Shown here piece after piece: positions 24,416 to 26,835 of a stretch of 40,061 nt of DNA. A program made the position numbers and the translations under genes. This DNA is from Candidatus Omnitrophica bacterium CG22_combo_CG10-13_8_21_14_all_43_16 (GTDB taxonomy: Bacteria; Omnitrophota; Gorgyraeia; Gorgyraeales; Gorgyraeaceae), in contig PCTH01000001.1 of assembly GCA_002771475.1 (NCBI GenBank), forward strand, positions 1 through 40,061, given 5' to 3'. The notes beneath the pieces are model-generated. The model worked only from the letters and a program-made list of their open reading frames with translations. It searched no databases and was not told where the DNA came from. Position 1 is the first letter of the stretch. Each line of letters opens with the position of its first letter.

Positions 24416-26835
24416 CGAGCTCTATGCCGGAATTTGCCGGAATTTGGCCGGAATTTGTGCCTGACACCGCTACGTAGCGGTGTCAGGCACAAGAAGAGTG
24501 TTACCAGCGTTATTATAGCGCCTATTTTAAACGAAAATGGATCGTATGTAAACTTCACGCTATGTTTTCCAGGCTCCAGATAAACTGCGCGCAAGGTATA
24601 ATCTGCCCTGTAAATCCTATTTAGCTTCCCATCCACACGCGCCTTCCATCCCGGATAATACGTATCGCTAAGCACTAAAAATCCTGGCGTATCGATATGA
24701 GCATCTATTTCAATATAACTTGGCTCATATTTTAAAATACGCACCGATCCTTCTCGACTCACTCGCTTTGCTCGTTCGCTCGAAGAATATTTGAGTAGCA
24801 GAGCAGAGCTCCGCGCAATATTGTTCGAGCGATCCGCCGTAGGCGGAGAGTCGAGAACCTCTTCTAAAATCACTTCCCTCTCTGGCTTAAATTCTTTACT
24901 CTTCAATCTCTTCAATATTTCCTTTTCATCCTTAATAACCACTGCCTTATTTGCCATAAATGCCCTTGGCAGAAAATTTTCATTTTCATAAATATTTACT
25001 TTTTTATTTTTCTCGAGCATCCTGTATCCCGCTGCATCGAAATCCTTCGGGGAAATGACGTATTTCACATTCAATAGGTTCAGGAGGTTTGTCTCGCCCG
25101 GCGAATTCGATCTCGCAATAATATCCATAATCTCTTCCTGTCTCCTATTGTAAAGTGACCCATAGCCATACGCGTCATAGATACCGAAGCTCATGCCTCT
25201 ATTTGAAACCACCCTTTCCATAAGAGCGAGATTGCCTTCAAAATAATCTTTTTCCGGCACAAACATGTTCTGCCTCAATGTGCTGGGAGAATTAAATATC
25301 CTGAACAGGCTTTTATCGCGCTGTAAAAATTCTACGGTATCCCCCGGCTTTAAAAATTCCTTTATGCCCATATTCTGGTACACATTTTTATTTGCGGTAA
25401 ATATGTCCGCCAGGGCTATCAATAATATAAAAACCAAAACCGCTTTCATGCTTACGCGTTTTTTTATCCCCAAAAACATAATCACTGATAAAAACATAAA
25501 TAACCCTATGCCTCTTTTTATGTTGTGGAGCCCTGTGATCACGAGCTGGTCTATCCTGTCAATCCTGGCGCCAAAACCGCTATTGATATTTAATACCATT
25601 TTCTTCAAAGACCCGCATATTCCGTAAAAATTCAGATTAACTATCAGAAAAAAGAGCGCCAGCATGAATCCAAATGCCAATACCTGTTTTAAAAATCTCC
25701 CAAAACCCGGATCTTTTTTTGCGTGAACCCTGTAATAATCCATCCCCATGCCCGCCAGGACCGCCAGAGAAAACGCAGCCATGAAAAAGAATTTTATAGG
25801 ATACCTGGAAAACCTGAAGCCGGGCAGAAAATTATATAAAAAATAATATACTGGCGTATACCTGCCGAATGAAAGCACCAGGCTCAGCGCCAGGATATAA
25901 AAAATTGTTTTTCTTCTTTTTGTGGAATCAAATTTCAGGGATATCAGCGCAAATATAACCGCAACTATCCCCATATAATAGACCACAAGCCAGCTCTGCC
26001 TGGTCCAGTAATCCTTATATATATAATCTGATTCGCTAAGATAGGGGAAAAATAATTCCGAAAGCGCGTACACAGGCATAGACCACATGGATGCCTCGTT
26101 AAAATCCATCAGATTTCTTGAAGTATGTTTTAAAAATTCCAGAAAAGGCAGGATCTGAAAAGCACAAAGCCCCAAAAACACACAAACAGCCAATAACAAA
26201 CACCGCCCCCACCTACGCGGTGGAACTCGTTCCACCGCGTAGGTGGAAAAAACCAGTATAAAAAAAGTACTATATAATATTATCGGCTCCCCTCCCAGGA
26301 ACATCAGCGCCATAAATACGCCTGTTATTACAGAATTTTTAATCCGGTCTTTTTTTACTGCCCGCTCGTAAAATAAAATCACAAGCGGAAGCCATACACA
26401 AGACGCCAGCGAAGCCAGAAGATTTATCACGGAAATTATATACCCTGAGAACATAAAAACTATTGCGGATAAAAACGAGGCATAGGTAGAATGGCCCCAC
26501 TCCCTCATTAAGATATAGGTGAACAAACCTGCCAGGAATATGTGGCTTATTATGAAATAATTAAATGCCTGGGGATAAGGAAACAATAAGTAAACTATGC
26601 TTGGAGGATAAAACACGCAGGTCTGAAGCTCTGCCAGGTGCGGGCTGCCGCATTGTATATATGGGTTCCATAATGGGACTTTCCATGAGAGAATTTGAGC
26701 GGCGCTGAATTCCCTTAAGGGATAAAAAAATCTGGAGAGGTCCCTGTGAATAAAAATCTTGCCCTGAAACAAGACATCTGAAAAAAATACCAGCGCTAGT
26801 CCCGCTAAAATAAAAATGGGGATGGCTTTCTTCAT
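24412..26835 (-). CDS. YfhO-family large polytopic membrane protein (putative GT-C-like)
   Basis: Many TM helices; LSDTYYPGWKARVDGKLNRIYRADYTLRAVYLEPGKHSVKFTYDPFSFKIGAIITL is the YfhO C-terminal signature. ATG at 26835 (MKKAIPIFILAG) preferred over 26949. Confidence 0.88.
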   Translation of the reverse strand: MKKAIPIFILAGLALVFFSDVLFQGKIFIHRDLSRFFYPLREFSAAQILSWKVPLWNPYIQCGSPHLAELQTCVFYPPSIVYLLFPYPQAFNYFIISHIFLAGLFTYILMREWGHSTYASFLSAIVFMFSGYIISVINLLASLASCVWLPLVILFYERAVKKDRIKNSVITGVFMALMFLGGEPIILYSTFFILVFSTYAVERVPPRRWGRCLLLAVCVFLGLCAFQILPFLEFLKHTSRNLMDFNEASMWSMPVYALSELFFPYLSESDYIYKDYWTRQSWLVVYYMGIVAVIFALISLKFDSTKRRKTIFYILALSLVLSFGRYTPVYYFLYNFLPGFRFSRYPIKFFFMAAFSLAVLAGMGMDYYRVHAKKDPGFGRFLKQVLAFGFMLALFFLIVNLNFYGICGSLKKMVLNINSGFGARIDRIDQLVITGLHNIKRGIGLFMFLSVIMFLGIKKRVSMKAVLVFILLIALADIFTANKNVYQNMGIKEFLKPGDTVEFLQRDKSLFRIFNSPSTLRQNMFVPEKDYFEGNLALMERVVSNRGMSFGIYDAYGYGSLYNRRQEEIMDIIARSNSPGETNLLNLLNVKYVISPKDFDAAGYRMLEKNKKVNIYENENFLPRAFMANKAVVIKDEKEILKRLKSKEFKPEREVILEEVLDSPPTADRSNNIARSSALLLKYSSSERAKRVSREGSVRILKYEPSYIEIDAHIDTPGFLVLSDTYYPGWKARVDGKLNRIYRADYTLRAVYLEPGKHSVKFTYDPFSFKIGAIITLVTLFLCLTPLRSGVRHKFRPNSGKFRHRAR
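24455..24492. repeat. Perfect 38-nt palindrome, GTGCCTGACACC family, inside the YfhO CDS 3' end
   Basis: ttgtgcctgacaccgctac|gtagcggtgtcaggcacaa. Confidence 0.92.
24751..24857 (-). repeat. Family-2 palindromic element inside the YfhO reading frame
   Basis: ttctcgact (24751-24759) / agtcgagaa (24849-24857); internal cgctcgaagaatat...aatattgttcgagcg and tccgccgtaggcgga. Confidence 0.92.
26209..26246. repeat. Perfect 18-bp-stem palindrome inside the YfhO reading frame
   Basis: ccacctacgcggtggaac tc gttccaccgcgtaggtgg. Confidence 0.92.

What the first reader, a model, noticed from the sequence alone, without database searches (positions are those of the whole stretch)
24751..24857. Palindromic element read in frame as ~36 residues inside the YfhO membrane protein
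The ~107-bp family-2 repeat (also at 23348 and 30455 in non-coding positions) lies inside the YfhO CDS. The minus strand reads EVLDSPPTADRSNNIARSSALLLKYSSSERAKRVSREGSVRI with no stop or frame break, between VILE(E) and VRILKYEPSYIEIDA, in the soluble region before the conserved LSDTYYPGWKARVDG motif. The same DNA is therefore both an intergenic palindrome and protein sequence. This resembles the in-frame Rickettsia palindromic elements (RPE), but with an unrelated sequence.
Basis: partly seen in the sequence, partly recalled or inferred. Interest (0 to 1): 0.85.

Follow-up and report, generated by a model that had tools for sequence, protein, structure and literature searches.

The report
Mobile palindrome translated inside membrane protein
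A small mobile DNA palindrome has inserted in frame into a bacterial membrane-protein gene and is read as part of the protein, and in related bacteria the same protein loop, and loops of several essential enzymes, have been filled again and again by different palindromes.

Summary
Window 24751-24857 is a dispersed palindromic element ("E"), read without a stop inside an intact yfhO gene of an Omnitrophota MAG. E is a cloverleaf-like inverted repeat, GTTCTCGACTC-hairpin-GCTCGAACAATATTCTTCGAGC-hairpin-GAGTCGAGAAG. It occurs in 17 of 19 genomes of this bacterial family (up to dozens of copies each) and in none of 112 sampled genomes of the class outside it. The window copy carries a second, GTAG-tagged REP nested in its centre; that REP flanks, and lies inside, a RAYT (REP transposase) gene in the same genome. 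Of 73 other sampled copies of E, 16 lie in frame in Pfam-confirmed genes (MurE, AroA, glycosyltransferases, malate dehydrogenase and others), in both orientations and several frames. In YfhO (two loops), MurE, AroA and a GT4 glycosyltransferase, relatives carry E, E reversed, the GTAG-REP, unrelated palindromes, or little or nothing at the same place. The insert is predicted to be a disordered beta-hairpin loop. It works like the Rickettsia palindromic elements but is unrelated by lineage. E's own transposase was not found.

The parts
24415..26838 (-). yfhO CDS (808 aa) that carries the element
   Evidence: ORF; Pfam PF09586 1.9e-31; 52 homologous rows in the tree
   Evidence: covariance model R1, E=1.9e-15; fold z -5.5; AlphaFold2 places most of it as a pLDDT<50 loop between strands 666-669 and 709-716
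24792..24816 (-). nested GTAG-REP (GCGCGGAGCTCTGCTCTGCTACTCA) inside the centre of E, between two AATATT copies
   Evidence: absent from most E copies (49 of 71 parsed have a plain AATATTC centre); same nest in G004; its family flanks the RAYT on G000:C76
26209..26246 (-). unrelated perfect palindrome (17-bp arms) at site 2 of YfhO, read as STYAVERVPPRRW
   Evidence: congeners carry E, another palindrome, or only a short turn at this site
24455..24492 (-). palindrome TTGTGCCTGACACC..GGTGTCAGGCACAA that forms part of the C-terminal tail of YfhO
   Evidence: the tail is pLDDT<50 and not shared by homologs
23345..23457 (-). intergenic copy of E
   Evidence: R1 40.0 bits, E=1.2e-6
30452..30520 (-). 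intergenic copy of E
   Evidence: R1 44.3 bits, E=1.1e-7

Best explanation
The segment is a copy of a dispersed, non-autonomous palindromic element of one Omnitrophota family. It entered a surface loop of YfhO in frame and is kept because it is translatable and structurally harmless. Shown: E is repetitive, folds as a cloverleaf-like inverted repeat, lacks stops in most of its six frames even in intergenic copies, and sits in frame in many conserved proteins. Shown: the same loops in YfhO, MurE, AroA and a GT4 glycosyltransferase are occupied by E in either orientation, by GTAG-REPs and by unrelated palindromes in different species. Inferred: insertion is frequent and largely undirected; most intragenic insertions are purged and those in permissive hairpin loops survive, so the loops act as traps. 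A resident palindrome then takes nested elements, swaps or loses hairpins in multiples of three bases, and is exchanged between relatives by local recombination. Inferred: the nested GTAG-REP was mobilised by the RAYT on contig C76. The mobiliser of E itself is not identified.
For: Repetition and spread: R1 hits in 12 of 12 genomes of the genus and 17 of 19 of the family, none in 112 class genomes sampled outside the family. Fold z -3.0 to -6.5. Open frames: 4.05 of 6 on average against 2.58 in shuffles, and 3.93 in the 57 copies not in a confirmed CDS. In-frame copies in Pfam-confirmed MurE, AroA, GT4, GT9, radical SAM, IF-2B/MtnA type, malate dehydrogenase, T2SSF, Wzy_C, DUF4416. Same-site recurrence: YfhO sites 1 and 2; GT4 with E in opposite orientations in G003 versus G005/G010 and an unrelated palindrome in G006; MurE with E in three species, GTAG-REP in five, another element in G001, almost nothing in G008; AroA loop 3 with E in three species and short loops in six. 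The five site-1 copies in YfhO are 76, 76, 109, 115 and 115 bases, equal modulo 3, although hairpins and a nested element changed. Loop position: AlphaFold2. RAYT link for the nest.
Against: No transposase gene flanked by E was found among 32 Y1_Tnp loci of the genus. No clean target duplication is visible at the AroA, MurE or GT4 sites, and E seems to replace part of the loop rather than add to a strictly empty site. Translation is inferred from frame conservation, not from peptides. Neutrality is not tested. All sequences are MAGs, so some differences could be assembly errors.
Confidence: 0.85

Rival explanations
1. The loop is an adaptive diversification region: lineages gain by varying exposed loops of YfhO and other proteins, and palindromes are the raw material.
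For: Loops turn over very fast; P0008 and P0019 differ almost only in a 37-residue tract around site 1.
Against: The same pattern is seen in cytoplasmic housekeeping enzymes (MurE, AroA, malate dehydrogenase) with no obvious reason for surface variation; the insert is predicted disordered.
Confidence: 0.08
2. The element acts mainly as an RNA or DNA structure (an mRNA hairpin that controls translation or stability) and the coding overlap is incidental.
For: Strong folds; many copies sit in short intergenic gaps of operons.
Against: At the same YfhO site relatives carry fillers that do not fold strongly (tandem repeats; L027, L028 and L033 without a peak there), so structure is not conserved at the site. 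Rfam has no match in the window.
Confidence: 0.04
3. Assembly or binning artefact: the insert is a chimera at a repeat.
For: MAG data; assemblies break and join at repeats.
Against: Many independent assemblies carry E in frame at the same place; ORFs stay open; the composite insert is also in P0004 and in G004.
Confidence: 0.03

Closest known systems
Rickettsia palindromic elements (RPE-1 and related; also reported in Wolbachia)
   Same: About 100-bp palindrome with terminal inverted repeats, intergenic and in frame inside conserved protein genes (description in PMC2229807).
   Different: Different phylum; E here ranges from about 50 to 126 bp with exchangeable internal hairpins, is read in both orientations and several frames, and shares its sites with unrelated palindromes.
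Intragenic GTAG and CGTC REPs (Di Nocera 2013, PMC3733652)
   Same: REP-type repeats inside ORFs; different REPs at about the same site in recB of two Xanthomonas species; RAYT-linked GTAG family. The nested element in the window fits the GTAG type.
   Different: E has no GTAG tag and no RAYT flanked by it; same-site recurrence here spans several proteins and several element families within one genus.
Coding palindromes in Nematomorpha mitochondria (PMC6649704)
   Same: Perfect inverted repeats inside coding genes that stay translated.
   Different: There both arms encode conserved protein regions; here the palindrome is a dispersed mobile repeat in variable loops.

Membership tests
Rickettsia palindromic elements (RPE) | dispersed palindrome with terminal inverted repeats | tested here: met
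Rickettsia palindromic elements (RPE) | in-frame presence in conserved protein genes as well as intergenic | tested here: met
Rickettsia palindromic elements (RPE) | Rickettsia lineage | tested here: not met
   host is an Omnitrophota MAG; E found only in one family of that phylum in the genomes searched
Rickettsia palindromic elements (RPE) | sequence similarity to a described RPE family | not tested
   RPE sequences were not at hand; the primary paper is not held
Rickettsia palindromic elements (RPE) | host protein translated and active with the insert (shown for gmk, PMC2229807) | not testable with these tools
   no proteomics or assays
GTAG-REP mobilised by RAYT (element E) | GTAG tag beside the stem | tested here: not met
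   consensus GTTCTCGACT..AGTCGAGAAG
GTAG-REP mobilised by RAYT (element E) | copies flank a RAYT gene | tested here: not met
   no E termini at 32 Y1_Tnp loci
GTAG-REP mobilised by RAYT (nested element) | GTAG tag plus short stem (GTAG-CGGAGC-n-GCTCCG) | tested here: met
GTAG-REP mobilised by RAYT (nested element) | multi-copy and flanking a RAYT gene in the same genome | tested here: met
   14 matches in G000 against 0 for the reversed control pattern; copies on both sides of and inside the RAYT on C76
MITE with target-site duplication (element E) | direct duplication of target bases | tested here: inconclusive
   no clean duplication at filled versus short loops; the nest in E is bounded by AATATT on both sides

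The most novel reading that the evidence does not exclude
In this Omnitrophota family several unrelated palindromic element families share the same permissive protein loops and drive rapid, recombination-assisted turnover of loops in essential enzymes, so that mobile palindromes are a main source of protein insertions in the lineage.
Probability: 0.45. Interest if true: 0.75.

Novelty: new variant of a known kind. Interest (0 to 1): 0.62.

Why it matters
Protein-coding palindromes are best known from Rickettsia and Wolbachia. Here a dozen related species give filled, short and differently filled versions of the same loops, in essential enzymes, with several element families and a linked RAYT. 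That makes it possible to test whether such loops are merely permissive, how the elements enter and leave, and whether translated mobile DNA changes protein function. It also warns that insertions used to compare or model MAG proteins can be recent repeats.

Tried and rejected
A clean empty site at YfhO site 1 was looked for: none, every relative has some filler. A cognate RAYT for E was looked for at 32 Y1_Tnp loci: none. Target duplication for E at AroA, MurE and GT4: not clear. A genus-only distribution, suggested by the class sample with stricter filters, was dropped after the family search. Rfam: no match. The Ogata 2002 paper is not held. One script failed at its end and only its partial output was seen. 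Four long ORFs over E without Pfam support (L169, L215, L174, L220) were not counted as coding.

Full report
The window is one contig (C64) of a 1.23-Mb Omnitrophota MAG (named relatives). The element at 24751-24857 is as described: it is open on the minus strand inside yfhO 24415-26838, and two other copies lie in gaps between genes at 23345-23457 and 30452-30520.

Anatomy. Copies aligned from several genomes give GTTCTCGACTC - hairpin A - GCTCGAAC AATATT CTTCGAGC - hairpin B - GAGTCGAGAAG. The ends pair, the centre pairs, and the two arms are hairpins of changing sequence, so the fold is cloverleaf-like. Of 69 parsed A arms 50 are distinct, yet 35% hold a perfect stem of at least 5 against 4% in shuffles; for B arms 24% against 5%. 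In the window copy a second element interrupts the centre: CAATATT|GCGCGGAGCTCTGCTCTGCTACTCA|AATATT. Its family, GGAGTAGCGGAGC-n-GCTCCGCGC, has 14 pattern matches in the genome and none for the reversed control, and lies on both sides of and inside a Y1_Tnp gene on contig C76. This is the layout of a GTAG-REP with its RAYT (PMC3733652).

Spread. A covariance model finds E in 12 of 12 genomes of the genus and 17 of 19 of the family, with matches (both strands counted) of 84 in G006, 83 in G012, 69 in G003 and 10 in the own genome. In a draw of 118 genomes of the class, scored with stricter filters, only four congeners matched; two same-family genomes and 112 from other families did not.

In-frame copies. 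Among 81 distinct copies with flanks, 8 are in YfhO, because YfhO loci were put in on purpose. Of the other 73, 16 lie in frame inside ORFs with Pfam domains around them. They use both orientations and several frames (VLDS.., SSRL.., FSTR..). E is compatible with translation in itself: copies outside confirmed genes have 3.9 of 6 frames open on average, and 56 of 57 have at least one. The shuffle control keeps dinucleotides but not the palindrome, so the excess over it should be read with care.

Same loop, many elements. YfhO site 1 (between VILEE and ILKY) holds E in 16 of 52 aligned homologs. Others hold CCCTCACCC..GGGTGAGGG, GACCCCGTACC..GGTACGGGGC, the CATTGCGAG..CGAAGCAAT repeat, or short tandem repeats. 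YfhO site 2 holds E in several species, unrelated palindromes in the window genome and in G006, and only a short turn in others. In 18 coding sequences the strongest fold, leaving out a hairpin conserved near the start codon, lies at site 1, site 2 or the C-terminal tail in 11; if those zones are taken as about 17% of the length, the binomial tail is 3e-5 (the zone size and the count are my estimates by eye). In a GT4 glycosyltransferase the linker VIYPG..YILFVGT holds E in one orientation in G003, in the other in G005 and G010, and an unrelated palindrome in G006 that resembles the repeats around a RAYT gene of that genome. In MurE one turn holds E in G003, G007 and G006, the GTAG-REP in G000, G002, G005, G009 and G011, another element in G001, and almost nothing in G008. 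AroA shows the same at several loops.

Dynamics. The YfhO tree without the variable parts needs at least 8 changes for E at site 1. All five sequenced site-1 copies share hairpin B, which speaks for one old insertion that was then lost, replaced or passed on. P0008 and P0019 are identical but for three residues outside a 37-residue tract around site 1, where one has E with its nest and the other a tandem filler. Local recombination is the simplest reading; a chimeric assembly is not excluded. Lengths of the site-1 copies differ only by multiples of three, which argues for translation.

Structure. AlphaFold2 on 66 homologs gives mean pLDDT 88.3. Residues 678-706, most of E, are below 50 and lie between strands 666-669 and 709-716; the C-terminal tail made in part by another palindrome is also below 50.

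Mechanism. I take E to be a non-autonomous mobile palindrome. Shown: repetition, open reading in conserved genes, same-site recurrence, nesting. Inferred: neutral retention in permissive loops, and RAYT mobilisation of the nested REP. Not known: what moves E. It works like an RPE but is not a member by lineage, and it fails the tests for a GTAG-REP of its own. Prior art covers intragenic REPs and one case of different REPs at about the same site in recB, so the kind is known; the multi-family, multi-protein recurrence in one genus is what I did not find described in the papers searched.

Noticed in passing
window 26800-26860 and the start of yfhO in relatives (L026-L039): A strong hairpin near the start codon (KWGWMKKAIPIF) recurs across YfhO homologs; it may be a translation-control structure.
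   Followed up: partly
L159 1704-1735: The RAYT gene on G000:C76 carries a copy of its own REP in frame inside its coding sequence.
   Followed up: partly
L184 835-2277; L221 799-2334; L264-L275: AroA (EPSP synthase) of this genus has several loops that differ by repeat-like inserts between species, including LTLPSPxRGEGKGEG elements.
   Followed up: partly
L030 2103-2173; L185 1501-1584; L225 1501-1588: Some E copies have a doubled AATATT at the centre with little or nothing between, which could be footprints of lost nested elements.
   Followed up: no
window 5533-5575, 17328-17370; 5580-5678, 15670-15768, 21364-21462, 31346-31444: Other dispersed repeat families of the window (CATTGCGAG type and a 99-nt family) were not studied here.
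   Followed up: no
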